Below, piece by piece: positions 615-14,993 of a stretch of 46,970 nucleotides of DNA. A program made the position numbers and the translations under genes. The notes below the pieces were generated by a model, which was not told where the DNA came from, did not search any database, and saw only the letters and a program-made list of their open reading frames with translations. Location of the stretch: contig CAJXMG010000021.1 of assembly GCA_913056395.1 (NCBI GenBank), positions 1-46,970 on the forward strand. The letters are read 5' to 3'. The stretch is from an uncultured bacterium. Its GTDB lineage: Bacteria > Planctomycetota > UBA8108 > UBA1146. Each line of letters opens with the position of its first letter. The stretch's first letter is position 1.

Positions 615-1784
615 ATGCCCGATTCGACGAGCACCACAGAACCGACCCTCGTTCCCGATTCGAATGAGCCGGCCACCCGAGGCCCCATCATCTGGTCGAA
701 CGCCCTCTTCCTGAGCCTCAGCCCGATTCTCACGGCACTGTCGATTCCTGCTTACATCTATTTTAGCGGTCATCACTGGGCGCTGACGGCTACCGCCATC
801 ACGTTGTGGATCTTTGCGGGGATGGGGATCACCGTCGGTTACCACCGTCTCTTCGCCCACCGTTCCTACGATGCCCACCCGGTATGGAGATTCATCGCTC
901 TTGTCTCCGGTGCGGCCGCCCTGCAGAACAGTGCTCTGGTCTGGTCCGCTTCCCACCGCCGACACCACAAGCACACCGACCATCATGAAGACCCCTACGA
1001 TGCCACCAAGGGATTCTGGTGGTCACACATGCGCTGGATCTTTCACGAGAATGACAAGGTCCACGATTACAGCAACGCCCCCGATCTGGCGGCGGACAAG
1101 TTGGTGATGTGGCAGCACCGCAACTACTGGAGCATCGTCTTCACCTGCAATGTCCTGATCCCTCTGGCATTGGGATTCATGATCGATCGCCCTCTGGGCA
1201 TGCTGCTCTTTGCCGGACTTGCCCGGGTCGTCTTTACCCATCAGGCCACCTTCTGCATCAACAGCCTGTGTCACATGATCGGTAATCAGCCCTGGTCCAA
1301 AAAAGACACCTCCAAAGACTCTTGGATCTGTGCCCTGATCACCTTTGGTGAGGGCTACCACAACTTCCACCACACCTTCCCAGCGGATTACCGCAACGGC
1401 CTGAAGTGGTACCACTTCGACCCTTCCAAGTGGCTGATCTGGACTGGCAACCTTCTCGGTCTGACCAGCAATCTGAAGCGAACGGAAGCACCGGTGCGGT
1501 GGAGAAAGCGTCACGACCGACAGCTGGAGGTCTACCTCGACCGTCTTGCGGAGACGCTTCCGGAAGTCCATGGCGAATGGAAAGTCCGCGTCGAAAGTGC
1601 CAGCCAGAGGGTCGAGGAAACCCTGACCCAATGGGCAGAACAGCTGAGAGAATATCGACGCGCCGTGAAGAACGGGGAAGTCACCGAATCCCTGCGTCAG
1701 GCGGTCAGCGAAGCGCAGAAAGCATGGCATCACTCATGGAAAGAGTTCATGGCCCTGCGCAACACGATGCCCCTGCCCGCATGA
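615..1784 (+). CDS. Membrane fatty acid desaturase (delta-9 / acyl-CoA desaturase family)
   Basis: 389 aa. Introduces a double bond into a fatty acyl chain with a diiron centre at the inner membrane. The three His boxes of the family are all present: HRLFAH (H77, H82), SHRRHH (H114, H117, H118) and GYHNFHH (H249, H252, H253). Hydrophobic segments around residues 27-72 and 172-206 fit the usual paired membrane hairpins. Residues about 290-389 form an unusual charged, helix-prone tail rich in Glu, Arg and Gln that ordinary bacterial desaturases lack. The stop overlaps the start of the following DUF1080 lipoprotein (ATGA), so the two are probably translated from one message. An electron donor is not encoded nearby. 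Confidence 0.88.
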   Translation: MPDSTSTTEPTLVPDSNEPATRGPIIWSNALFLSLSPILTALSIPAYIYFSGHHWALTATAITLWIFAGMGITVGYHRLFAHRSYDAHPVWRFIALVSGAAALQNSALVWSASHRRHHKHTDHHEDPYDATKGFWWSHMRWIFHENDKVHDYSNAPDLAADKLVMWQHRNYWSIVFTCNVLIPLALGFMIDRPLGMLLFAGLARVVFTHQATFCINSLCHMIGNQPWSKKDTSKDSWICALITFGEGYHNFHHTFPADYRNGLKWYHFDPSKWLIWTGNLLGLTSNLKRTEAPVRWRKRHDRQLEVYLDRLAETLPEVHGEWKVRVESASQRVEETLTQWAEQLREYRRAVKNGEVTESLRQAVSEAQKAWHHSWKEFMALRNTMPLPA

Positions 1785-3460: not shown

Positions 3461-4486
3461 TTAGCTTCCGTGGTGGGGAACCAGGCGCTCGACGGGCAGA
3501 CCCGCCACTTCCCTGAGGACGGCGTCGACGTACTTCTCGATCATCTTGCCGCGCCACTGGGGGGCGAAGTCGGTGTTGCCGAGGGGGTTTGCGCCATCTC
3601 CCTTGCGGGCGAGGGCTGCGGCTTCGGCGATGGTTTCTGCGGTCAGCGGTTTGCCGATGAGATGATCGATGCTTTCGCTGCAGCGCACCGGAGTGCTGCC
3701 CACAGAACCGAGCCAGATCTCGATTCGATCGGTGGTCTCACCACTGCACCAGCCGGCCACGGCCACACTCAACACCCCGTAATCGATGGAACCGCGACGA
3801 CGCAGTTTCCACCAGCCGGTGCGTTCACCGGAAGGTGCCGGAATCCTCACCCGGGTGAGGATCTCGTCGGGACGCTTGGTCAGGTAATGCATGCCATCAT
3901 CGTTGAAGAGCTCGGCCAGAGGCACGATGCGCTCGCCCTCGGTGGAGTGCAGGGTGATCTCGGCTCCGAGAGCACACAGCATCGGCACCGAATCACCACT
4001 GGAAACCGCCCAGCAACGGGGGCTGCTCGGAGCGACCCAGCACACTTCTCCCTCTGCCTTCATGCAGTAGGAGATGCTGCGACGCCACTCTTCATTCTGG
4101 TTGTAGTAAGTGCAGCGGGTATCGAGGCACAGGTTGCCGCCGATGGTCCCGGTGTTGCGCAACACCGGACTGGAGATACTGGCGATGGCTTTCACCAGCG
4201 TCGGGTACTTCTCCTGCACCGTTTCATTGCGGGTGATCTGATCGAGGGTCGTCGTCGCACCGATGATCACGCCGCCTTCGTCGTCGACACAAATGCCACT
4301 CATCTCCGGGATGGACCGCAGGGAGACGATGGTCTTTGCTCCCTGGTGACGACGCTTCATGTTGGGCCACAGATCGGTGCCCCCAGCGACAACGCGGGTG
4401 TTGGCCGGATCCTCGGCAAGGATTCTTGCGGCATCAGCGGCGGTTTCAGGAGCATGGAACTGGAATGCGGGAAGCCTCAGCATCAC
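3461..4486 (-). CDS. hcrB: 4-hydroxybenzoyl-CoA reductase-like, FAD / [4Fe-4S] subunit
   Basis: 341 aa. FAD subunit of a xanthine-oxidase-family enzyme: VVAGGTDLWPN near residue 33 and TGTIGGNLC near 112 are the two FAD-binding loops. Right after the second loop is the insertion found in 4-hydroxybenzoyl-CoA reductase, carrying an extra low-potential [4Fe-4S] cluster. Cys125, Cys141, Cys149 and Cys158 are spaced 16, 8 and 9, as I recall for the Thauera aromatica enzyme, and the surrounding DTRCTYYNQ also matches. This loop is what separates HcrB from ordinary CoxM/XdhB subunits. The start overlaps the stop of the Mo subunit by 4 bases, so it is the last gene of the reductase operon. In the family, electrons enter through this subunit and drive reductive removal of the para-hydroxyl group. 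Confidence 0.85.
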   Translation of the reverse strand: MMLRLPAFQFHAPETAADAARILAEDPANTRVVAGGTDLWPNMKRRHQGAKTIVSLRSIPEMSGICVDDEGGVIIGATTTLDQITRNETVQEKYPTLVKAIASISSPVLRNTGTIGGNLCLDTRCTYYNQNEEWRRSISYCMKAEGEVCWVAPSSPRCWAVSSGDSVPMLCALGAEITLHSTEGERIVPLAELFNDDGMHYLTKRPDEILTRVRIPAPSGERTGWWKLRRRGSIDYGVLSVAVAGWCSGETTDRIEIWLGSVGSTPVRCSESIDHLIGKPLTAETIAEAAALARKGDGANPLGNTDFAPQWRGKMIEKYVDAVLREVAGLPVERLVPHHGS

Positions 4487-7017
4487 TCCCCTCCCTTCAC
4501 GGCGTCCTTGCGTTCGGTCATGGTGCCGGTGCCCTCGCGGACTCCAGCCTCCTCGATGTTGATCGCCTTGCCGTCACCGCCCTCTTCGGGGGTCGGCACA
4601 CGGAGGGGCGTTCCAAAGTCGACTTCAGGAAACTTCTTCGGACCGAAGCGGGCTTCCTTGCCCTTGTCGCGGGCCTCGATGGCCTGGCGGATCATGTGCG
4701 GTGCAATCGGCACCTGATCCACACGCACGCCGACCGCATCGAAGATGGAGTTGGCCACCGCCGGCATCATCGGCAACAGCGGTCCCTGCCCCACTTCCTT
4801 GGCCCCGAAGGGTCCATTGGGATCGGGGTCTTCAATGATGTAGGAGGTCACCCCCGGCATATCGGCGAAGGTCGGGCTCTTGTATTCGAGCATCGACGGG
4901 TGCTTGTGCACGAGAGCATTGGAGCGCTTCTTCGGCAGACGACGGTAGACCTGTTCTTCCATCATCGCCTCACCGAGGCCCATGTAGACACTGCCCTCGA
5001 TCTGGCCCATCACCATCGCCGGGTTGATGCACTGGCCCACATCGTGCGCCATCCACACATGCTCGACGCGGTAGACACCGGTTTCAGGGTCGACCCGTGT
5101 CTCGACGACGGCGGCACTGTAACTGTAGGCCGGCGAGGGACCGACACCGGCTCCGCGGTAGCGGCCCGGAGAGCGCGGCGGAATGTAACTGCCGGTGGTT
5201 CCGAGGGTGCCAAAACGGGACTCCGCCTCGATCACCGCTTCCTGCCAGGTCATGCCCACTTCCGGGTTTTCCCCGTGGAAGACACGCCCTTCCGCAAAGA
5301 CCAGTTCGTTGGCGGGAACCTCCAGTTTTTTGGCCGCACCCTTGGCGACCAGATCCCGCGCCCGCTCCGCGGCCTGCAGGGCGGCATTGCCCGCCATCAG
5401 CGTCACCCGGGATGAGTAACTGCCGAGGTCGACGGGAGTCAGATCCGTATCTGCGACGCAGAGTCGAATATCCTTGAGATCGATGCCGAGGACCTCTGCG
5501 GTGATCGCTGCGACCACCGAATCGGAACCCTGGCCGATCTCGGTTTCTCCACAGAAGAGAGCGACTCCGCCGGACCGATCCAGCTGCAGCTGCACCCCCG
5601 ACTGGGGCATGTGATTCCAATAGATGGGCAAGCCGGCACCACTGAGGTAGGAACCGCAGGCGAGACCCAGTCCGTGTCCTTCCGGCAGTTTTCCGTGGCG
5701 CTCTTTCCAGCCACTGCCCTCGACCACCGCTTCGATGCATTTGCCGAGTCCCATCGAACCGACCTTGAGCCAGTTCGAGGTCACACTGTCGGCGGGCACC
5801 AGCTGTTGCATGCGCATCTCCGCCGGATCGAGTCCCAGGCTGTGGGCGATCTTGTCGAGGTGCACTTCAAAGGCGAAGCGCGGCTGCGGAGTACCGTGTC
5901 CACGCTTGGGACCACAGGGCGCCTTGTTGGTGAAGGCACGGATACTGTCGAAGCGATACTTGGGAAGGTTGTAGGTCACCGTCTGCAGGGCACCCGTGTA
6001 GTAGGTGCTCGCCACTCCGTAACTGCCGTAGGCTCCACCGTCGAGGGCGGTCTGCAGGTGCTGGGATGTCAGGGTGCCATCCTTCTTGACCCCGGTGCGG
6101 ATCTTCATGAGCACCGGATGGCGTCCGCGGTGGCAGTAGAAGACCTCTTCGCGGGAGAGGCTGATCTTGACGGGGCGTCCCAGTTTCAGCGCCATCTTGG
6201 CGGCGCAGACTTCATGGTTGAACGGGTCACTCTTGCCGCCGAAACCACCGCCATTGGGACAGGCGATGACACGAATCCGCGAAGCGGGCAACTCAAGAAC
6301 CTTGGTCAGTGAGCGATGCAGGTAGTGCGGCGTCTGAGTGGAAGAGTAGACCGTGACCCGATCCACCTCTTCGGTCAGAGCCACCGTCGCATGCTGCTCC
6401 ATCGGCAGGTGCGTGTTGCCTTCGAAGTACATGACGTCCTCGAAGATTTCATCCGCTTCCTCAAAGCCGGCGTCGGTATCGCCGAACTGCATCGACAGTT
6501 TCTTGTGCAGGTTGCCTTCGTCGCCGTAGTCGTGAATCCGCGGTTCCGGAGTGGCGACCGCTTCCTCGACGGTGGCGATCGTCTCAAGAGATTCGTACTC
6601 GACTTTGACGGCGAGGGAAGCCTCGTAAGCCTGCTCTTCCGTGAGAGCGGCAACCGCCACTACCGGGTCACCGACGAAGCGCACCTTGTCGACACAGAGG
6701 GCGTGTTCGTCTTGACTCACCGGCAGGATTCCAAAGGGATTCGGCATCGATTCACCGGTGAGGAATCCGAGGACTCCGGGCATCTTCTCCGCTTCGGAGA
6801 GATCGATGTCGACGATGCGTGCGTGAGGAACCGTCGAACGCACCAGTTTCATGTGAACCATACGCGGGAAACTGAGGTCGTCGGCAAAGCGTGTCTGGCC
6901 CGTGACCTTGGCGCGGCCGTCGACGCGCCTGAACGGCTTGCCGACCAGGTTGAAATCACGTCCTGTCGGGGATTTGCGCTGATCCTGCTTTTTGGAGGGA
7001 TCCAGGGGCTCATGCAT
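4483..7017 (-). CDS. hcrA: 4-hydroxybenzoyl-CoA reductase-like, molybdopterin catalytic subunit
   Basis: 844 aa from the ATG at 7017, which overlaps the end of the 2Fe-2S subunit. The open frame reaches 7305, but that part is shadow of the upstream gene. Xanthine-oxidase-family large subunit: FRRVDGRAKVTGQTRFADD at the N-terminus, NGGGFGGKSD (256-262 glycine loop), EIGQGSDSVV in the middle, and WMAHDVGQCINPAMVMGQIE near the C-terminus. The active-site loop reads GAKEVGQGP: residue 744 is Gln (codon at 4786-4788) where the family normally has the catalytic Glu of the VGE motif. It is somewhat longer than typical HcrA. Assignment to 4-hydroxybenzoyl-CoA rests mostly on its partner HcrB. A related CoA-thioester or aromatic substrate is possible. 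Confidence 0.8.
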   Translation of the reverse strand: MHEPLDPSKKQDQRKSPTGRDFNLVGKPFRRVDGRAKVTGQTRFADDLSFPRMVHMKLVRSTVPHARIVDIDLSEAEKMPGVLGFLTGESMPNPFGILPVSQDEHALCVDKVRFVGDPVVAVAALTEEQAYEASLAVKVEYESLETIATVEEAVATPEPRIHDYGDEGNLHKKLSMQFGDTDAGFEEADEIFEDVMYFEGNTHLPMEQHATVALTEEVDRVTVYSSTQTPHYLHRSLTKVLELPASRIRVIACPNGGGFGGKSDPFNHEVCAAKMALKLGRPVKISLSREEVFYCHRGRHPVLMKIRTGVKKDGTLTSQHLQTALDGGAYGSYGVASTYYTGALQTVTYNLPKYRFDSIRAFTNKAPCGPKRGHGTPQPRFAFEVHLDKIAHSLGLDPAEMRMQQLVPADSVTSNWLKVGSMGLGKCIEAVVEGSGWKERHGKLPEGHGLGLACGSYLSGAGLPIYWNHMPQSGVQLQLDRSGGVALFCGETEIGQGSDSVVAAITAEVLGIDLKDIRLCVADTDLTPVDLGSYSSRVTLMAGNAALQAAERARDLVAKGAAKKLEVPANELVFAEGRVFHGENPEVGMTWQEAVIEAESRFGTLGTTGSYIPPRSPGRYRGAGVGPSPAYSYSAAVVETRVDPETGVYRVEHVWMAHDVGQCINPAMVMGQIEGSVYMGLGEAMMEEQVYRRLPKKRSNALVHKHPSMLEYKSPTFADMPGVTSYIIEDPDPNGPFGAKEVGQGPLLPMMPAVANSIFDAVGVRVDQVPIAPHMIRQAIEARDKGKEARFGPKKFPEVDFGTPLRVPTPEEGGDGKAINIEEAGVREGTGTMTERKDAVKGGE

Positions 7018-7585
7018 GGGAGTCCCCCTCTCCCGGCAAGGGGTCGCCGTAAATCGCCTCCTTGGGAGGAGTGTAATCGTTGTCCCCGCGCATTTTGGCG
7101 GCGGCCCACTCGATTCCCTCAAGGATCTTGTGGTAGCCGGTGCATCGACACAGGTTTCCTGCCAATGCCGAGACGATTTCATCGCGGGTCGGCTCCGGGT
7201 TCTCTTCCAGCAGAGCCTTGGCAGTGACGAGGATACCCGGGGTACAGTAACCACACTGGGCAGCCCCCAGATCTGCGAAAGCCTCTTGAAGAGGATGCAG
7301 GTCATTGCCGTCCATCATGCCTTCGACGGTGGTAATCTCCCGGCCTTCACACTCCGCAGCCAGTTCCAGACAACTGAGCACCGGCTGACCGTCGATGAGG
7401 ACCGTGCAGGTTCCGCACTCCCCCAATTCGCAGCCATGCTTGGTTCCGGTGAGATTCAGTTGTTCACGCAACACTTCCAGCAGGGAGTGATGGACAGAGA
7501 ATCCTGTCTGGTGAGGTTCGCCATTGACGTTGAGAAGACGGAACACCTGCTGGTGCTCACCCGCCTTTTGGTCCTGTGAATCCAC
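7010..7585 (-). CDS. hcrC: 4-hydroxybenzoyl-CoA reductase-like, [2Fe-2S] subunit
   Basis: 191 aa starting at a GTG (7583-7585) with GGAGG AGGGG just upstream. The alternative ATG at 7657 would overlap panD and adds unconserved residues. Two [2Fe-2S] clusters are visible: the plant-ferredoxin type with Cys52, Cys57, Cys60 and Cys72 (GCELGECGTC), and the helical type with Cys111, Cys114, Cys146 and Cys148 (CGYCTPG and CRCTGY). This is the standard small subunit of molybdenum hydroxylases, passing electrons between flavin and the Mo centre. It lies 49 nt after panD and overlaps the Mo-subunit start. Confidence 0.88.
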   Translation of the reverse strand: MDSQDQKAGEHQQVFRLLNVNGEPHQTGFSVHHSLLEVLREQLNLTGTKHGCELGECGTCTVLIDGQPVLSCLELAAECEGREITTVEGMMDGNDLHPLQEAFADLGAAQCGYCTPGILVTAKALLEENPEPTRDEIVSALAGNLCRCTGYHKILEGIEWAAAKMRGDNDYTPPKEAIYGDPLPGEGDSHA

Positions 7586-7634
7586 TTGCCCCCTCCTCCG
7601 GTTTTGGGCGGAGACCCTGTCGGGATCGGTTCGA

Positions 7635-8045
7635 TCAGCTCTGGAGATCTGCCTCACGCTGATACGGTTTGGATGGTCCTGGAATTTCTGCCTCTGAACC
7701 GGTGATCCGGTTCTCGGAATCGACCCTCACCACTCGGGATTTGTACTCCCGGGCTTCGGCGTCTTCCAATTCCACCCAACTGGCGATGATGACCAGATCC
7801 CCCGGCTCGTTTTGGTGAGCTGCGGCCCCATTGATACAAATGGTTCCGGAGCCCGCTTCACCGGGCAGGGCGTAGGTCACGATCCGGGTTCCCCGGGTGA
7901 TGTTCCATATGTGCACCTGCTGGCCGGGCAGAATGTCTGCAGCCTCCAGCAGATCGGTATCGATGGAGACACTGCCCTCGTAATCGAGGTCTGCCCCAGT
8001 CACCGTTGCACGGTGTATTTTTGAATGCAGAAGGGTTCGCCGCAT
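7635..8045 (-). CDS. panD: Aspartate 1-decarboxylase
   Basis: 136 aa. Pyruvoyl enzyme making beta-alanine from aspartate for pantothenate and Co[23 protein letters not shown] (Gly-Ser self-cleavage pair that yields the pyruvoyl group), [30 protein letters not shown] and GDLVIIASW follow the family almost residue by residue. Slightly longer than the usual 120-130 aa because of a polar C-terminal tail. It is the first gene of the minus-strand group that continues into the reductase subunits. A link to CoA-thioester catabolism is suggestive but unproven. It faces boxC across a 318-base gap. Confidence 0.95.
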
Positions 8046-8363
8046 GGCGCGAATCCATCCTTTCCCGGCCAGAAAAACCTCCGGCCGACAGTCCTAAATC
8101 ATATCCCAAGGCTACCCATCGCCTCCAGCAAATCGTATCACCAGAACATGTCCAAGAATCCCGCCTCCGAGGCGACCGTAAAGGTTGCCACCCATGTCCC
8201 ATTCATGCAGGATGGGGGGTCTACGACCGGAAATCCGGATTCCGCCCAAACGGGAGGCGCCGGACAACAGACCACGCCCGATTCGTCCCTCCAAACTGGG
8301 GCGACCCCGGCGATGTCTCCGGGCAATGACCAAATGGACATGGACCAGGAAAGGGACCACGCC
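8046..8363. promoter_or_regulatory. Divergent panD / boxC control region
   Basis: 318 bases between the two diverging operons of the aromatic island, so it must carry promoters for both. GGAAAGGATGG just outside the panD ATG is its likely ribosome site, and AGGAAAGGGA sits about 7 bases before the boxC ATG. The boxC frame stays open across the whole gap, back to 8025 inside panD, but the encoded stretch is Gln/Thr/Gly-rich and unlike BoxC. I could not define a clear promoter or operator. Confidence 0.45.
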
Positions 8364-9998
8364 ATGGACAACATTTCCCTGCAGACCCACCCGTCTCAGT
8401 ATCGTCATTGGCAGATCGAGAAAAACGGGCAGGAGATGCGGGTCAACATGAATGTGAACCCGAATCACCCCCTCAGAGAAGGCTACGAACTGAAGTTGAA
8501 CTCCTACGATCTGGGAGTCGACATCGAGTTGGCAGACATCGTCCGCAGACTGCGCTTCGAGCACCCGGAGATCACCTCCCTGGTGGTCAGCAGTGCCCAT
8601 GAACAGGTCTTCTGTGCGGGCGCCAACATCCACATGCTCGGAGTTTCCACTCACGGCTGGAAAGTCAACTTCTGCAAGTTCACCAACGAGACCCGTTGCG
8701 AACTGGAAGACTGGGCAGAACAGGCGGATGTTGCGACCGTTTGCGCCATCACCGGCCCCTGTGCCGGAGGTGGATACGAACTGGCTCTCGCCTGTGAGGA
8801 GATCTGGCTCGTCGACGACGGAAACAGTGCGGTCAGTCTCCCGGAGACTCCCCTTCTGGGAGTGCTTCCAGGTACCGGAGGCCTGACCCGTCTCGTCGAC
8901 AAACGCAAGGTCCGTCGCGACCGCGCCGACGTCTTCTGCACCCTCGCCGAAGGGTTCAAGGGCAAGAAAGCCCTCAACTGGGGACTGGTCGATGCCATCG
9001 CCCCCAAATCCAAGTTCAACGACAAACTTGCAGAACACCTCGTATCCCACAGGGAGCAGCGTCCCGGTCGTGCTGACCGGAAAGGAATCTCTCTGGGTGA
9101 GATCCCCTTCGTCGATGAGGACAATGTCCGCAAGTACTCCACCTTGAGCGTCGCCTACGAAAATGATCGTCGCACCGCCAAGCTGGAGATTCAGGTTCCT
9201 TCCGCAGAAGGTGCCCCTTCCACCGTTGAAGAGATTCATGCCGCTGGAGACCAGTTCTGGCCGCTGAAGTTTGCCCGGGAGCTGGAAGACGCCATCCTCG
9301 ATTTGAGGGTAAACCGTCACGATACCGGCCTGGTGTTGCTGAGCACCCAGGGCAGTCTGGACGACATCAAGGCGTGGGATCAGATCCTCATCGACCATCA
9401 GGGAGACTGGCTCGTCGACCAGATCACCTACCTGATGAGCCACGTGATCCAGCGTGTTGAAAGAACCTCCTGCAGTTTCTTTGCGTTGATCGAGAACGGA
9501 TCCTGCTTCGGCGGATCTCTCCTCGAGCTGGCACTCGCCTGCGATCGCCTCTACATGCTGGACGAAGACGGGATCGAGATTCAGCGCTCTCCGATGAATG
9601 AGGGCCTGCTGCCGATGACGACCGGCATCACCCGTCACGCTTGCCGACTCCTCGGCGAAGAAGAACTCTGCGCAAGCAGCCAGGGCAATTTCGATCGCCT
9701 GGACGCCACGGACGCCGAGGAAATGGGCCTGATTACCGAGGCCCTTGACGAATTTGATTTTGAAGACATGGTTCCCGTGGCCATCGATGAGCGAGTCAGC
9801 CTTTCGCCCGACTCCCTCACCGGCATGGAAGCCAATCTGAGATTCGCTGGACCGGAGAACATGGAAAGCAAAGTCTTCGGTCGTTTGAGCGCATGGCAAA
9901 ACTGGATTTTCATCAGACCCAATGCAACTGGACCGAATGGAGCCTTGACCCTGTACGGACGCCCGGAGAGACCGGAGTTCGCATGGGACAGGGTTTGA
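8364..9998 (+). CDS. boxC: 2,3-epoxybenzoyl-CoA dihydrolase (BoxC)
   Basis: 544 aa from the ATG at 8364, chosen because it has a good ribosome site and because the BoxC-typical THPSQYRHWQIE begins a few codons later. In-frame ATGs at 8148, 8313, 8334 and 8340 would only add an unconserved leader. The protein has two crotonase-like halves: GYELKLNSYDLGVDIELAD, then VFCAGANIHML and GPCAGGGYELALACEE, then a second set with FALIENGSCFGGSLLELALA. BoxC hydrolyses 2,3-epoxybenzoyl-CoA, opening the ring to a semialdehyde CoA ester plus formate. It is followed 13 nt later by boxB. Length fits the family. Confidence 0.93.
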   Translation: MDNISLQTHPSQYRHWQIEKNGQEMRVNMNVNPNHPLREGYELKLNSYDLGVDIELADIVRRLRFEHPEITSLVVSSAHEQVFCAGANIHMLGVSTHGWKVNFCKFTNETRCELEDWAEQADVATVCAITGPCAGGGYELALACEEIWLVDDGNSAVSLPETPLLGVLPGTGGLTRLVDKRKVRRDRADVFCTLAEGFKGKKALNWGLVDAIAPKSKFNDKLAEHLVSHREQRPGRADRKGISLGEIPFVDEDNVRKYSTLSVAYENDRRTAKLEIQVPSAEGAPSTVEEIHAAGDQFWPLKFARELEDAILDLRVNRHDTGLVLLSTQGSLDDIKAWDQILIDHQGDWLVDQITYLMSHVIQRVERTSCSFFALIENGSCFGGSLLELALACDRLYMLDEDGIEIQRSPMNEGLLPMTTGITRHACRLLGEEELCASSQGNFDRLDATDAEEMGLITEALDEFDFEDMVPVAIDERVSLSPDSLTGMEANLRFAGPENMESKVFGRLSAWQNWIFIRPNATGPNGALTLYGRPERPEFAWDRV

Positions 9999-10011
9999 AC
10001 GGGGGACTTAC

Positions 10012-11427
10012 ATGAGCAAGGTAGATCAGAACGGCAAAATTCCGAACAACGTCGATCTCTCGAGCGACAAGCGTTTGCAGCGCGCTCTGGAGCATTGGCT
10101 GCCCCTTTACATGGAGTGGTGGAATGACATGGGGCCTGTCGGTTTCCAGTCGAAAGACATCTACCTGCGGACTGCCGTCTCCGTGGAAGCGGGTGGCTGG
10201 GCCAACTTTGACTACGTCAAAATGCCAGACTACCGCTGGGGTATTTTCCTCGCCCCCGATGGTGACAGCCAGCGCACCATCGGCTTTGGTGACCACTTCG
10301 GCAAGCCGACCTGGAAAGAGATTCCCGGTGAATACCGAGGAAACCTCCGTCGTATCATCGTGACCCAGGCGGATACCGAGCCCGCGTCCGTGGAACAGCA
10401 GAGATACCTGGGAAGCATTGCCCCGTCTCTCTACGACATGCGCAACCTGTTCCAGGTCAACGTGGAAGAGGGTCGTCACCTGTGGGCGATGGTCTACCTG
10501 CTCTTCCGCTTCTTTGGCAAAGACGGTCGCGATGAGGCGGAAGAGTTGCTCAGCCGCCGCAGTGGTGACGAGGACAAGCCGAGGATCCTCAATGCTTTCA
10601 ACGAGCCTTGCGACCACTGGCTCTCCTTCTTCAGCTTCACCCACTTCACCGACCGCGACGGCAAGTTCCAGTTGGCTTCGCTGGCAGAAAGTGGATTCGA
10701 GCCTTTGGCGAGAACCTGTGAGTTCATGCTGACCGAGGAAGCCCACCACCTCTTCGTCGGTGAGACTGGAATCGATCGCATCATCAAACGCAGCGCCGAG
10801 TTGACCAAGGAAACAGACGGTCAGGCTGAAACTGCCGGAGGAATTCCGCTGGACATGATCCAGAGGTCTATCAACTACTGGTTCAGCTACAGTCTCGACC
10901 TCTTTGGTGGCGAGATCTCCTCCAACGCAGCCAACTTCTTTGGAGAAGGCCTCAAGGGTCGCTTCAAGGAGCCGGGCCGCTACGAAGACCACATCATGAA
11001 GGATGGCATCAAGGTGATCCCCATCGTCAAGAACGGTGTGATCGTCGATGAAGAGATGCCCTACCGGAATACACTCAACGAAGTCCTCCGCGAGGAATAC
11101 ATCGCCGACTGCGAGAGAGCTCTTCGCAAATGGAACCGCACCCTCGAGAAAAGCGGTCTCGATACCCGCTTCAAGTTGCCGAACCGCCGCTTCCACCGTG
11201 CACAGGGAATCTATTCCGATCACCACTTCGATCCGGAAGGAAACCTGATCACCGAAGAAGAGTTCCGCGCCAACATGCACACCTGGATGCTGAACACCGA
11301 GGACAATGACTACCTGAAGTCGATCATGCACCCCGTCACCGAACCGGGAAAAATGGCCAACTGGATCGCCCCGCCTTCTAGGGGTATCAATGGTCAGGCT
11401 GTCGATTTCGAATACGTTCGCCTGTAG
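10012..11427 (+). CDS. boxB: Benzoyl-CoA 2,3-epoxidase, oxygenase component (BoxB)
   Basis: 471 aa. Diiron oxygenase that epoxidises benzoyl-CoA with O2. Diiron ligands can be picked out: Glu123 (QADTEPAS), the E-x-x-H of VEEGRHLW (Glu153, His156), Asp201 in EPCDHWL and the E-x-x-H of TEEAHHLF around 242-246. RLQRALEHWLPLYMEWW and KDIYLRTAVSVEAGGWANF are typical of the BoxB N-terminus. GGGGGA precedes the ATG. The reductase partner BoxA and a benzoate-CoA ligase are not seen in the window, so electrons must come from a protein encoded elsewhere. Confidence 0.95.
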   Translation: MSKVDQNGKIPNNVDLSSDKRLQRALEHWLPLYMEWWNDMGPVGFQSKDIYLRTAVSVEAGGWANFDYVKMPDYRWGIFLAPDGDSQRTIGFGDHFGKPTWKEIPGEYRGNLRRIIVTQADTEPASVEQQRYLGSIAPSLYDMRNLFQVNVEEGRHLWAMVYLLFRFFGKDGRDEAEELLSRRSGDEDKPRILNAFNEPCDHWLSFFSFTHFTDRDGKFQLASLAESGFEPLARTCEFMLTEEAHHLFVGETGIDRIIKRSAELTKETDGQAETAGGIPLDMIQRSINYWFSYSLDLFGGEISSNAANFFGEGLKGRFKEPGRYEDHIMKDGIKVIPIVKNGVIVDEEMPYRNTLNEVLREEYIADCERALRKWNRTLEKSGLDTRFKLPNRRFHRAQGIYSDHHFDPEGNLITEEEFRANMHTWMLNTEDNDYLKSIMHPVTEPGKMANWIAPPSRGINGQAVDFEYVRL

Positions 11428-13140: not shown

Positions 13141-13926
13141 ATGAATGAATCACTGCCATCTTCACTGGATCCACGACTGGCCAACCTTTTCCGGGGGGAC
13201 CTGGACGAGGTAACAGAAGCCTGCATCCAGTTGATCAATACCGTCTTTGATGATCCTGAACTCGAACAGTCGATGATCGAGCGAATTCAGCAACTGATCG
13301 ATGACGAGGAAGGATTCCTCCCCGGAGAATTGTGCATGGCACTGATTCTCGGGGAACTGCGCAGCGCTCCAGCCACCCCCATCTTTCTGCAGGCTTTGAG
13401 GGATGAGGATGAAATGCTGCAACGGATCTCCATTCGATCTCTTCAGCGAATCGGTGATCCTGCTTTTGAAGCGATTCTGGAGATGCTGGAAGACCCCCAA
13501 CTCGAAGGGGAAACCGCATCTCTGGCGATTGAGGCCCTCGAAGGGATATCACTTCACGAACTTCCCCAGCAAAGAACCGCCATCGAAGAGCGGCTGCGCA
13601 AGGATCTTCTCTCCCAACGACTCCCTTTGCCCAGACGGGAAGCGGCGGCGACGGCGCTGTCTCATTTGGGAATGGCGGATGCGATTGATTTGCTCGAAGA
13701 GGTTTTGCAAAGGGATTTCCCCCACGGCAATGTGCTGATCGGGGAATCGCTGGAAGCTTTGAAGGAAAATCCTTCAGGTCAGGGTGGCGTTGCGGAGGAC
13801 CCCATCGAGAACGTACTCGGTTGGCTGGAGTTGGATCTGGTTCCGGGGGCGGAGTTTGAAATCGAACCGCTCCTTCCCGAGGGTAAACCCCCCCGGGAAG
13901 AAACAGATCTCAATTTTGAGGATTAA
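13141..13926 (+). CDS. HEAT-repeat-like protein of unknown role
   Basis: 261 aa, acidic, helical throughout. Repeated helix pairs such as LCMALILGELRSAPATPIFL, ISIRSLQRIGDPAFEAILEM, LAIEALEGIS and EAAATALSHLGMADAIDLLE have the spacing of HEAT/PBS-lyase repeats, which act as binding scaffolds. The last 40 residues are acidic and Pro-rich. No signal peptide or membrane segment. AGAGGGA precedes the ATG. The stop overlaps that of the convergent dehydrogenase gene in the shared TTAA at 13923-13926. Confidence 0.65.
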   Translation: MNESLPSSLDPRLANLFRGDLDEVTEACIQLINTVFDDPELEQSMIERIQQLIDDEEGFLPGELCMALILGELRSAPATPIFLQALRDEDEMLQRISIRSLQRIGDPAFEAILEMLEDPQLEGETASLAIEALEGISLHELPQQRTAIEERLRKDLLSQRLPLPRREAAATALSHLGMADAIDLLEEVLQRDFPHGNVLIGESLEALKENPSGQGGVAEDPIENVLGWLELDLVPGAEFEIEPLLPEGKPPREETDLNFED

Positions 13927-14993
13927 ACCTCTTCAAAGAACCAGGGCTTCAGAACCTGAAGTCTGGACTCGTAGTCTTCCGGATCGAGCAACCAGTTGGT
14001 ACTTGCCACCGAGGAAAGCAGGCTGTTGCCGTCCTGCGGGGTGAAGCAGAAACCGGTGATCCAGCGTCCGTCGACCACTGAAAGAGTCTCGTGCGGAATG
14101 ACGGTCTGATTGAGAATTCGGCCGAAGAAACCGTGATCCCTGCCAAAACTGAAGACCTGATTGGCTGACTTCTTGTAAGTCACCGCGAGGCGATCATTCT
14201 CACGAATCAACTCCATCAACTGCTCCACAGAGGTGTCCTTTTCCACACGAATGCGGAACCTCAAGGTATGCATGTACTGGGAGTTGAGCTTGACGGCACT
14301 GGAGTAGAGATTCTGGTAACTGAGATTCATCGTTTTGAAAAGGTGGTGGGCGTCTCGGGCATGGTGGGTTCCAAAGGACTCATCCTTGTGCTTGCCCACC
14401 TGCGGTGAAGGTGCGAAGCCGGCATCCTGACTGACGTCATTGGCCCTGCGCATGCAGACGAAGTCTGCGGATACGAGGTTTTGCGGTTCACGACCATTTT
14501 CCATCGCAAGGGTCTTGAGAATCGCTGCCAAGTTGTGAGTGTTGCACGAGACCACGTGGAGGAAGCGGTCTTCGCCGGGAACGAGAGCCTCGTCATTGAT
14601 TCCTCGGGCATACATCTTACCGAAGCCAAACTCTGATCCCTGGGCAATGAATCCCTTGACCGAAGATGCGGATTCATAGAATTCAGATTTGTTGGCCAGG
14701 CCTGCACCCGAAGGCGTGCAATCGATCACCACTGCGGATCGCTCGATGGCTTCGCGGGTCTCAAACTCTGCCTTGAGACCGAGTTTTTCAAATCCAGACA
14801 TCGCTTCCTGGGAAGTGGAAAGCTTCGCACCACGATCCAAGAGTGTTTTGACTTTGGAGCGGTCGGTGAAGAGCGGAGATCTCTTGTTGAAAGTGACCTC
14901 GTCGATGCCGAGTTTTTCTTTGAAATGGCACAAAAGGCCGATGAGTGGCTCCCCGATGGTTCCGGTGCCAACGACATGAACAATTCTGGACAT
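13923..14993 (-). CDS. Type II (archaeal-like) glyceraldehyde-3-phosphate dehydrogenase-like protein
   Basis: 356 aa. N-terminal Rossmann loop GTGTIG (9-14), then VVIDCTPSGAGLANKSEFYE (88-107) and HVVSCNTHNLAAIL (146-159) with the presumed catalytic Cys150. GTHHARDAHHLF (208-219) carries the His-His-x-x-Asp seen in archaeal phosphorylating GAPDH. This combination (CTPxGxGAxNK, SCNTxx, HHGxD) is the type II enzyme pattern and is unlike normal bacterial GapA (SCTTN). It is longer than archaeal forms, with divergent stretches, so another NAD(P)-dependent aldehyde or semialdehyde substrate is possible. CAGGGGGA lies before the ATG. Transcribed alone, converging on the HEAT gene. Confidence 0.68.
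   Translation of the reverse strand: MSRIVHVVGTGTIGEPLIGLLCHFKEKLGIDEVTFNKRSPLFTDRSKVKTLLDRGAKLSTSQEAMSGFEKLGLKAEFETREAIERSAVVIDCTPSGAGLANKSEFYESASSVKGFIAQGSEFGFGKMYARGINDEALVPGEDRFLHVVSCNTHNLAAILKTLAMENGREPQNLVSADFVCMRRANDVSQDAGFAPSPQVGKHKDESFGTHHARDAHHLFKTMNLSYQNLYSSAVKLNSQYMHTLRFRIRVEKDTSVEQLMELIRENDRLAVTYKKSANQVFSFGRDHGFFGRILNQTVIPHETLSVVDGRWITGFCFTPQDGNSLLSSVASTNWLLDPEDYESRLQVLKPWFFEEV

What the first reader, a model, noticed from the sequence alone, without database searches (positions are those of the whole stretch)
3461..11427. 4-hydroxybenzoyl-CoA reductase-like operon placed divergently beside aerobic boxCB
The sequence shows an HcrB-type FAD subunit with the extra four-Cys loop, plus HcrA and HcrC, next to BoxC and BoxB. 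4-Hydroxybenzoyl-CoA reductase is known as a reductive, oxygen-sensitive enzyme of anaerobic aromatic degradation, while Box is an O2-dependent epoxidation route from benzoyl-CoA. Linked together they would form an unusual path: 4-hydroxybenzoyl-CoA reduced to benzoyl-CoA, then epoxidised and opened. That would suit an organism living at low or changing oxygen. BoxA and a CoA ligase are not here.
Basis: partly seen in the sequence, partly recalled or inferred. Interest (0 to 1): 0.8.

Follow-up and report, generated by a model that had tools for sequence, protein, structure and literature searches.

The report
Molybdenum reductase paired with aromatic ring-opening genes
An uncultured planctomycete and most of its close relatives keep genes for a reductive enzyme, of a type known from life without oxygen, beside genes that open aromatic rings with oxygen; the reductive enzyme belongs to a widespread sister group of the known one, with a key active-site residue changed and no tested member that I could find.

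Summary
In detail: hcrC-hcrA-hcrB (minus strand) lies divergent from boxC-boxB (plus strand). All five genera of the family carry both gene sets. They lie on one contig in 10 of 16 genomes (three genera) and in a sister family; in G003 hcr stands without panD or boxC. Separate hcr-box clusters occur in betaproteobacterial MAGs, with an aryl-CoA ligase, flavodoxin and boxR, and in one gammaproteobacterial MAG.

Two qualifications. (1) HcrABC is not Thauera-type. HcrA forms a supported sister clade that keeps the four-Cys loop of HcrB and an HCR-specific Tyr, but has Gln for the catalytic Glu in 82 of 83 rows (one truncated). All three subunits score below the HCR equivalog cut-offs. (2) BoxA is over cut-off in 0 of 16 family genomes, and no ligase of this genome reaches the benzoate-CoA ligase cut-off.

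Most likely reading: a low-potential carrier drives reductive dehydroxylation of a hydroxybenzoyl-CoA to benzoyl-CoA, which BoxB and BoxC then open. Coupling is inferred from gene linkage; substrate and activity are untested. Co-occurrence beyond linkage is only modestly above the phylum background.

The parts
7635..8045 (-). panD, aspartate 1-decarboxylase, first gene on the hcr side; the only panD found in the genome
   Evidence: TIGR00223 143.8 bits, cut-off 106; single match in own genome; in this place in the 10 family stretches that hold it; not beside hcrC in G003 nor in the sister family (L237)
7010..7585 (-). hcrC-like, subunit with ligands for two [2Fe-2S] clusters
   Evidence: Fer2/Fer2_2; 8 cysteines invariant in 71 of 71 rows; TIGR03193 175.2 bits, below cut-off 257.8
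4483..7017 (-). hcrA-like, molybdopterin catalytic subunit; Tyr340 = Thauera Tyr326; Gln744 (codon 4786-4788) at the position of Thauera Glu726
   Evidence: 1rm6_A best in sequence and fold; tree; residue survey; codon position
3461..4486 (-). hcrB-like, FAD subunit with the extra four-Cys loop
   Evidence: 1rm6_B best; four Cys invariant in 92 of 92 rows; TIGR03195 264.8 bits, below cut-off 404.55
8148..9998 (+). boxC, 2,3-epoxybenzoyl-CoA dihydrolase; start uncertain (8148, or 8364 near where homology with other genera begins)
   Evidence: TIGR03222 698.1 bits, just below cut-off 712.3; 2w3p; start comparison
10012..11427 (+). boxB, di-iron benzoyl-CoA 2,3-epoxidase subunit, of the BoxB clade mostly seen here without boxA beside it
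   Evidence: TIGR03225 709.4 bits, cut-off 499.1; active-site positions the same in 50 of 50 rows (numbering recalled); tree
8046..8147 (.). divergent intergenic region between panD and boxC (reaches 8363 if boxC starts at 8364)
   Evidence: aligned over 10 loci, one short nearly conserved block; promoter function not tested

Best explanation
panD-hcrCAB and boxCB form one divergent locus for CoA-bound aromatic acids. A molybdenum enzyme (HcrABC, sister clade of 4-hydroxybenzoyl-CoA reductase) takes electrons from a low-potential ferredoxin or flavodoxin through the [4Fe-4S] cluster of HcrB, FAD and the two [2Fe-2S] clusters of HcrC to the molybdenum site of HcrA, and removes the ring hydroxyl of a hydroxybenzoyl-CoA (most likely 4-hydroxybenzoyl-CoA) to give benzoyl-CoA. 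BoxB, with O2 and an unidentified reductant in place of BoxA, makes 2,3-epoxybenzoyl-CoA, and BoxC opens the ring. Shown: genes, order, conservation, cluster ligands, BoxB active-site residues, phylogeny, the Glu-to-Gln change, absence of BoxA over cut-off. Inferred: substrate, direction, electron donor, and that both operons act in one pathway. Panthothenate-side role of panD is a guess.
For: Both gene sets in all 5 genera; hcr beside box on one contig in 10 of 16 genomes, from 3 genera (G000, G010, G011, G013, G014; G004, G006, G007, G008; G009) and in sister family G449. Other hcr-box clusters: L065 and L093 (boxB, boxC, boxR, flavodoxin, aryl-CoA ligase, hcrCAB), L101 (part of boxC, boxR, flavodoxin, ligase, hcrCAB) and L087, whose contig in G051 also holds boxB and boxC about 9 kb away; in L065 the ligase scores 784.7 bits (TIGR02262, cut-off 375.25) and a boxD 686.8 (PRK11903, cut-off 444). 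In L051 a BoxB 3' end (287.7 bits to TIGR03225, partial) lies about 25 bp upstream of the hcrC ORF on the same strand, and Had and Dch follow hcrB. Ligase homologues lie next to hcr in L109, L111 and L113 and about 6 kb away in L079. Tree: window clade and Thauera clade are joined at 99/95, apart from xanthine-dehydrogenase-like rows. 21 HcrA positions are shared by both HCR clades and absent from 9 xanthine-dehydrogenase-like rows, Tyr326 among them. Fold: 1rm6 ahead of XDH (5e-82 against 1e-59). dN/dS 0.02-0.19 where it could be computed for hcr and box genes.
Against: The catalytic Glu is Gln in the sampled clade. All three Hcr subunits miss their equivalog cut-offs. BoxA over cut-off in 0 of 16 family genomes; no ligase over cut-off in own genome. 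In G003 hcrC has an unrelated gene upstream, no panD or boxC within 2.2 kb. BoxB is in 101 of 343 phylum genomes at 200 bits or more; 5 of the 8 searched hcr-bearing planctomycetes outside the family have it, against 85 of 326 (Fisher p 0.036, no correction for relatedness; at least four of the eight are also inside the 326, which were not searched for hcr). hcr is near boxB in 0 of 19 planctomycete regions fetched outside the order, and 70 of 74 clade loci outside the family show no box in the stretch fetched.
Confidence: 0.48

Rival explanations
1. The sister clade removes a hydroxyl from a different aryl-CoA (3-hydroxybenzoyl-CoA, protocatechuoyl-CoA or another), still feeding benzoyl-CoA into Box.
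For: Distinct clade with 24 near-fixed differences from the Thauera clade, Glu-to-Gln among them; below equivalog cut-offs; no ligase over the benzoate-CoA ligase cut-off in the genome; PaaK-like ligases beside hcr in L085 and L054, below PaaK cut-offs.
Against: An HCR-specific Tyr and 20 other HCR-specific positions are kept; ligases beside hcr in other loci resemble or belong to the benzoate-CoA ligase family.
Confidence: 0.25
2. The two operons do different jobs and stayed neighbours by descent; HcrABC acts on an unrelated substrate or pathway.
For: 70 of 74 clade loci outside the family show no box in the stretch fetched; the window's linkage may be one event inherited within one order, and is absent in G003; the locus also holds panD, a gene of another pathway.
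Against: Separate linkage in betaproteobacterial MAGs and in L051; with 29 BoxB-bearing genomes of 50 and an assumed 0.5% chance each, two or more chance linkages have p about 0.01 and four or more 2e-5, uncorrected for relatedness.
Confidence: 0.19
3. HcrABC runs as a hydroxylase (benzoyl-CoA plus water to hydroxybenzoyl-CoA), a branch away from Box.
For: Many solved relatives in the xanthine-oxidase family are hydroxylases (PMC10420851 passages).
Against: The Glu said to activate the molybdenum-bound oxygen for hydroxylation (PMC10420851, passages) is Gln here; the extra [4Fe-4S] ligands, which in Thauera go with an 'inverted electron flow' (title of Unciuleac 2004, seen in reference lists), are invariant.
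Confidence: 0.06

Closest known systems
4-hydroxybenzoyl-CoA reductase HcrABC of Thauera aromatica (PDB 1RM6/1SB3)
   Same: Three subunits, four-Cys loop in HcrB, Tyr326, fold (1rm6 best); HcrA 39% identical over 758 columns
   Different: Separate sister clade; Glu726 is Gln; below the three equivalog cut-offs; locus context is box
Box pathway: BoxB 3PER and canonical boxC-boxB-boxA clusters such as that of Mycetohabitans rhizoxinica
   Same: BoxB over cut-off with the same active-site residues; BoxC just below cut-off; boxC-boxB order
   Different: No boxA in the locus and none over cut-off in the genome; BoxB in another clade, with His-to-Trp and Tyr-to-Phe in 42 of 42 rows of it; hcr alongside
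SAR324 genome bins with a ligase-BoxB-BoxC cluster and a 4-hydroxybenzoyl-CoA reductase (PMC4782131, passages read)
   Same: Both gene sets reported from SAR324 bins; boxA is not named in the cluster described
   Different: In the passages read they are reported apart and not joined into a pathway; the authors link the reductase and a thioesterase to 4-hydroxybenzoate and tyrosine metabolism

Membership tests
4-hydroxybenzoyl-CoA reductase (HcrABC) | FAD subunit with extra four-Cys [4Fe-4S] loop | tested here: met
   (92 of 92 rows); presence of the cluster itself not testable
4-hydroxybenzoyl-CoA reductase (HcrABC) | Phylogenetic position with HCR rather than xanthine-dehydrogenase-like enzymes | tested here: met
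   sister clade, 99/95; some long branches flagged; HbaBCD and PcmRST not included
4-hydroxybenzoyl-CoA reductase (HcrABC) | Curated equivalog cut-offs TIGR03193/03194/03195 | tested here: not met
   175.2/257.8, 793.4/994.55, 264.8/404.55 bits; HCR is the best model for HcrA and HcrB but third for HcrC
4-hydroxybenzoyl-CoA reductase (HcrABC) | Catalytic Glu726 (position of the xanthine oxidase catalytic Glu) | tested here: not met
   Gln in window and sampled clade; Glu in Thauera and the 13 other Thauera-type rows that reach the site (L193 ends before it)
4-hydroxybenzoyl-CoA reductase (HcrABC) | Reduces 4-hydroxybenzoyl-CoA to benzoyl-CoA | not testable with these tools
   needs enzyme assay
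Aerobic benzoyl-CoA (Box) pathway | BoxB over cut-off with di-iron ligands | tested here: met
   (ligand numbering recalled)
Aerobic benzoyl-CoA (Box) pathway | BoxC over cut-off | tested here: inconclusive
   698.1 against 712.3 bits; 2w3p is the top structure
Aerobic benzoyl-CoA (Box) pathway | BoxA reductase | tested here: not met
   0 of 16 family genomes over cut-off, 8 with matches of 28.3 bits or less; control BoxA scores 683.3
Aerobic benzoyl-CoA (Box) pathway | Benzoate-CoA ligase in genome | tested here: not met
   3 matches at E 1e-20 or better, none over cut-off; one is acetate-CoA ligase over cut-off, one is nearest to it, the third read by eye only
Aerobic benzoyl-CoA (Box) pathway | BoxD semialdehyde dehydrogenase in genome | not tested
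Aspartate 1-decarboxylase PanD | Curated equivalog cut-off | tested here: met

The most novel reading that the evidence does not exclude
A second, uncharacterised class of reductive aryl-CoA dehydroxylase, found in MAGs labelled as about eight phyla, in which the catalytic Glu of the xanthine-oxidase family is fixed as Gln, so that hydroxylation is disabled and the enzyme works one way. In several lineages it is wired to a form of benzoyl-CoA epoxidase that does without BoxA, both drawing on one free low-potential carrier (ferredoxin or the neighbouring flavodoxin): a hybrid route that first reduces and then oxygenates the ring.
Probability: 0.33. Interest if true: 0.75.

Novelty: new variant of a known kind. 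Interest (0 to 1): 0.57.

Why it matters
If true, reductive dehydroxylation of hydroxybenzoyl-CoA, known from anaerobic metabolism, is also a step in O2-using bacteria, and genome surveys that read 'hcr' as an anaerobic marker would be wrong for this clade. The invariant Gln gives a natural test of what the conserved Glu does in molybdenum hydroxylases and in HCR. The missing BoxA raises a clear, testable question about what reduces this form of BoxB.

Tried and rejected
Rejected: xanthine-dehydrogenase or other hydroxylase identity. Rejected as special: lack of boxA beside boxCB is common in the phylum (20 of 20 regions fetched, some cut by contig ends), so it is no oddity of this locus. Weakened: genome-wide co-occurrence of hcr and boxB as evidence, because the phylum background is high. 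Weakened: 'boxA-less = second BoxB clade' is not strict; L169 and L176 have no boxA beside boxB yet group with canonical BoxB, L172 and L174 carry a BoxB of the second clade next to boxA, and four genomes with clade hcr (those of L172-L175) do have boxA.

Led nowhere: Thauera-type hcr on plasmids (best identity 36%; one search likewise); Had in the family (over cut-off only in G003); terminal inverted repeats at the G010 hcrB break; a shared operator in the intergenic region (one short block only); a paper naming Glu726 of HCR (none); the HcrB structure model (low confidence in the Cys loop; no fold search run on it). Not placed on the tree: Rhodopseudomonas HbaBCD and Geobacter PcmRST (names recalled; no sequence at hand). 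Not searched in the own genome: boxD, ferredoxins, 2-oxoacid:ferredoxin oxidoreductase, PaaK.

The 83 rows are the window, 13 family stretches, 63 loci outside the family and 6 records seen twice; without the six it is 76 of 77. HcrA rows under about 250 aligned residues were dropped and under 300, HcrB/HcrC rows under 60% length, L193 and L204 from the tree, L203 from the residue comparison. Organism labels are those of MAG records; at least two look wrong (L044, L096). The BoxB tree is a quick search.
Full report
What is there. On the minus strand panD (7635-8045), hcrC (7010-7585), hcrA (4483-7017) and hcrB (3461-4486) follow each other, with a 49-base gap after panD and then overlapping ends; on the plus strand boxC (8148 or 8364 to 9998) and boxB (10012-11427) run the other way. 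The upstream part of the 4483-7305 ORF lies in another frame over hcrC and is not HcrA. Sequence, family models and solved structures agree on each identity.

How conserved it is. hcrB matches in 14 of 16 genomes of the family (not G005, G012) and boxB in 15 of 16 (not G005); both sets occur in all five genera. hcr and box lie side by side on one contig in 10 of 16: G000, G010, G011, G013, G014, G004, G006, G007, G008 and G009, from three genera; in several of these hcrB is cut by a contig end. In G001, G002 and G015 contigs end before the question is settled. In G003 the linkage is broken: 2.2 kb upstream of hcrC holds an unrelated gene and no panD or boxC. Between genera HcrA is 84-88% and BoxB 81-85% identical, while NagZ, the next gene, drops to 47-49%. 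dN/dS is 0.02-0.19 where it could be computed for the hcr and box genes, several comparisons being saturated. In the sister family (G449, L237) hcr and box stand divergent without panD.

Which enzyme it is. HcrA is 39% identical to Thauera HcrA and its predicted fold matches 1rm6 better than any xanthine dehydrogenase. In a tree of 58 HcrA-like proteins the window clade (33 rows) and the Thauera-type clade (13 rows) are joined at 99/95, apart from xanthine-dehydrogenase-like rows (long branches are flagged). HcrB keeps the four extra cysteines in 92 of 92 rows and HcrC its eight in 71 of 71. But the residue at the place of Thauera Glu726 is Gln in 82 of 83 rows (the other is truncated; 76 of 77 without duplicate records), against Glu in Thauera, in the 13 other Thauera-type rows that reach the site (one is Thauera's own sequence) and in all ten xanthine-dehydrogenase-like rows. 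Two paralogues (L205, L206) also have Gln but lack the HCR Tyr. That the corresponding Glu activates the molybdenum-bound oxygen in xanthine oxidase, and may serve as proton donor in nitrite reduction, is stated in PMC10420851 (passages read); the numbers Glu726 and Tyr326 for HCR are recalled and fit the aligned positions. Three residues upstream both HCR clades carry another Glu where xanthine-dehydrogenase-like rows have Gly or Ser (position 740), which might take over. All three subunits fall below the HCR equivalog cut-offs. I therefore call it HCR-like, sister clade, and not a proven 4-hydroxybenzoyl-CoA reductase.

Links to Box elsewhere. Among 74 clade loci outside the window family, BoxB or BoxC lies within the fetched stretch in four: L051, L065, L093, L101 (a 25-29% hit in L079 is not counted). 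The betaproteobacterial clusters hold boxB-boxC-boxR-flavodoxin-ligase-hcrCAB (in L101 only part of boxC is on the contig), with boxD in L065: nearly a full route from the free acid to the opened ring. In L051 a partial BoxB (287.7 bits) sits just upstream of hcrC, and hcrB is followed by 6-hydroxycyclohex-1-ene-1-carbonyl-CoA dehydrogenase and cyclohexadienecarbonyl-CoA hydratase genes, both over cut-off, with a 2-oxoacid:acceptor oxidoreductase on the other strand. Of 50 clade genomes searched (of 74), 35 have a BoxB match and 29 one of 200 bits or more; at an assumed 0.5% chance each, two or more chance linkages have p about 0.01, uncorrected for relatedness.

What speaks against a simple story. 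boxB is common in Planctomycetota: 119 of 343 genomes at E 1e-40 or better, 101 with at least 200 bits. Five of eight searched hcr-bearing planctomycetes outside the family have it, against 85 of 326, p 0.036; at least four of the eight are among the 326, and the 326 were not searched for hcr. Of 20 planctomycete boxB regions fetched, hcr is near only in the sister family. BoxA is over cut-off in 0 of 16 family genomes and 0 of 10 other clade genomes searched, nine of which have a BoxB match; the model itself works, as Mycetohabitans BoxA scores 683.3. But four other clade genomes do have boxA beside boxB (L172-L175). No ligase of the own genome reaches the benzoate-CoA ligase cut-off.

BoxB without BoxA. 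A tree of 50 BoxB proteins separates 3PER, Mycetohabitans and other boxA-linked copies, with L169 and L176, from a group of 42 that holds the window, the planctomycete rows and the hcr-linked betaproteobacterial ones (SH-aLRT 99, quick search). All seven active-site positions checked are the same in 50 of 50; His291 and Tyr311 of 3PER are Trp and Phe in 42 of 42 of the second group. L172 and L174 hold boxC-boxB-boxA-boxB, one BoxB of each group. What reduces the window's BoxB is open; a free ferredoxin with an FNR, or the flavodoxin of the betaproteobacterial clusters, are candidates by inference only.

Prior work. The open-access library holds 45 papers naming the reductase (40 listed). Searches joining it to the box pathway, boxB, epoxidase, benzoyl-CoA oxygenase or planctomycetes, and hcrABC to aerobic benzoyl-CoA work (long lists seen only in part), gave one close precedent: SAR324 bins with a ligase-BoxB-BoxC cluster and, separately, a 4-hydroxybenzoyl-CoA reductase (PMC4782131, passages). 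PMC10803450 (passages) reports clusters lacking BoxA. PMC5852087 (passages) reports hcrA transcripts in a benzene-degrading consortium and discusses box genes expressed without oxygen. PMC12771579, PMC12879404 and PMC6307125 (passages) did not bear on the Gln clade. No paper in these searches was seen to describe it; subscription journals are not held, so this is no proof of novelty.

Verdict. The pathway reading is the best available but inferred, and the enzyme is a sister of HCR whose substrate I found no test of.

Noticed in passing
window 7635-8045: panD, the only aspartate decarboxylase gene found in the genome, heads the hcr side in 10 family stretches; perhaps tied to CoA demand, perhaps chance. 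Missing there in G003 and in the sister family.
   Followed up: partly
L029 1-120 and L037 1-200 (G010); also G003, G004, G007, G008, G013, G015: Contigs of 7 family MAGs end inside hcrB, and G009 has a run of N there; in G010 both halves run into unrelated sequence at the same codon, as if something were inserted. Assembly breakage not excluded.
   Followed up: partly
L205, L206: A second HCR-like paralogue group in two betaproteobacterial-type genomes, also with Gln at the catalytic Glu position but Leu instead of the HCR Tyr; substrate unknown.
   Followed up: partly
L172 6797-12506, L174 6502-12327: boxC-boxB-boxA-boxB clusters with one BoxB from each of two BoxB clades.
   Followed up: partly
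L051 1-10343: BoxB, hcrCAB and two genes of the anaerobic benzoyl-CoA route (Had, Dch) in one run, with a 2-oxoacid:acceptor oxidoreductase opposite.
   Followed up: partly
L085 4689-6986, L088 6044-6991; window 615-1784: A fatty-acid desaturase homologue lies upstream of hcr on the same strand in two acidobacterial loci (with a PaaK-like gene between in L085) and also near hcr in the window family.
   Followed up: no
G010 (C5 and C118): One family genome holds two boxB copies, 98-99% identical to the window's.
   Followed up: no
window 13923-14993: A protein resembling type II GAPDH (below cut-off) is about as conserved between genera as the box and hcr genes.
   Followed up: no
window 8098-8104: A short block (ATCATAT) is nearly conserved in the intergenic alignment of 10 loci, including the sister family that lacks panD.
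   Followed up: no
L096: A MAG record labelled Klebsiella pneumoniae carries clade hcr genes; the label looks wrong.
   Followed up: no
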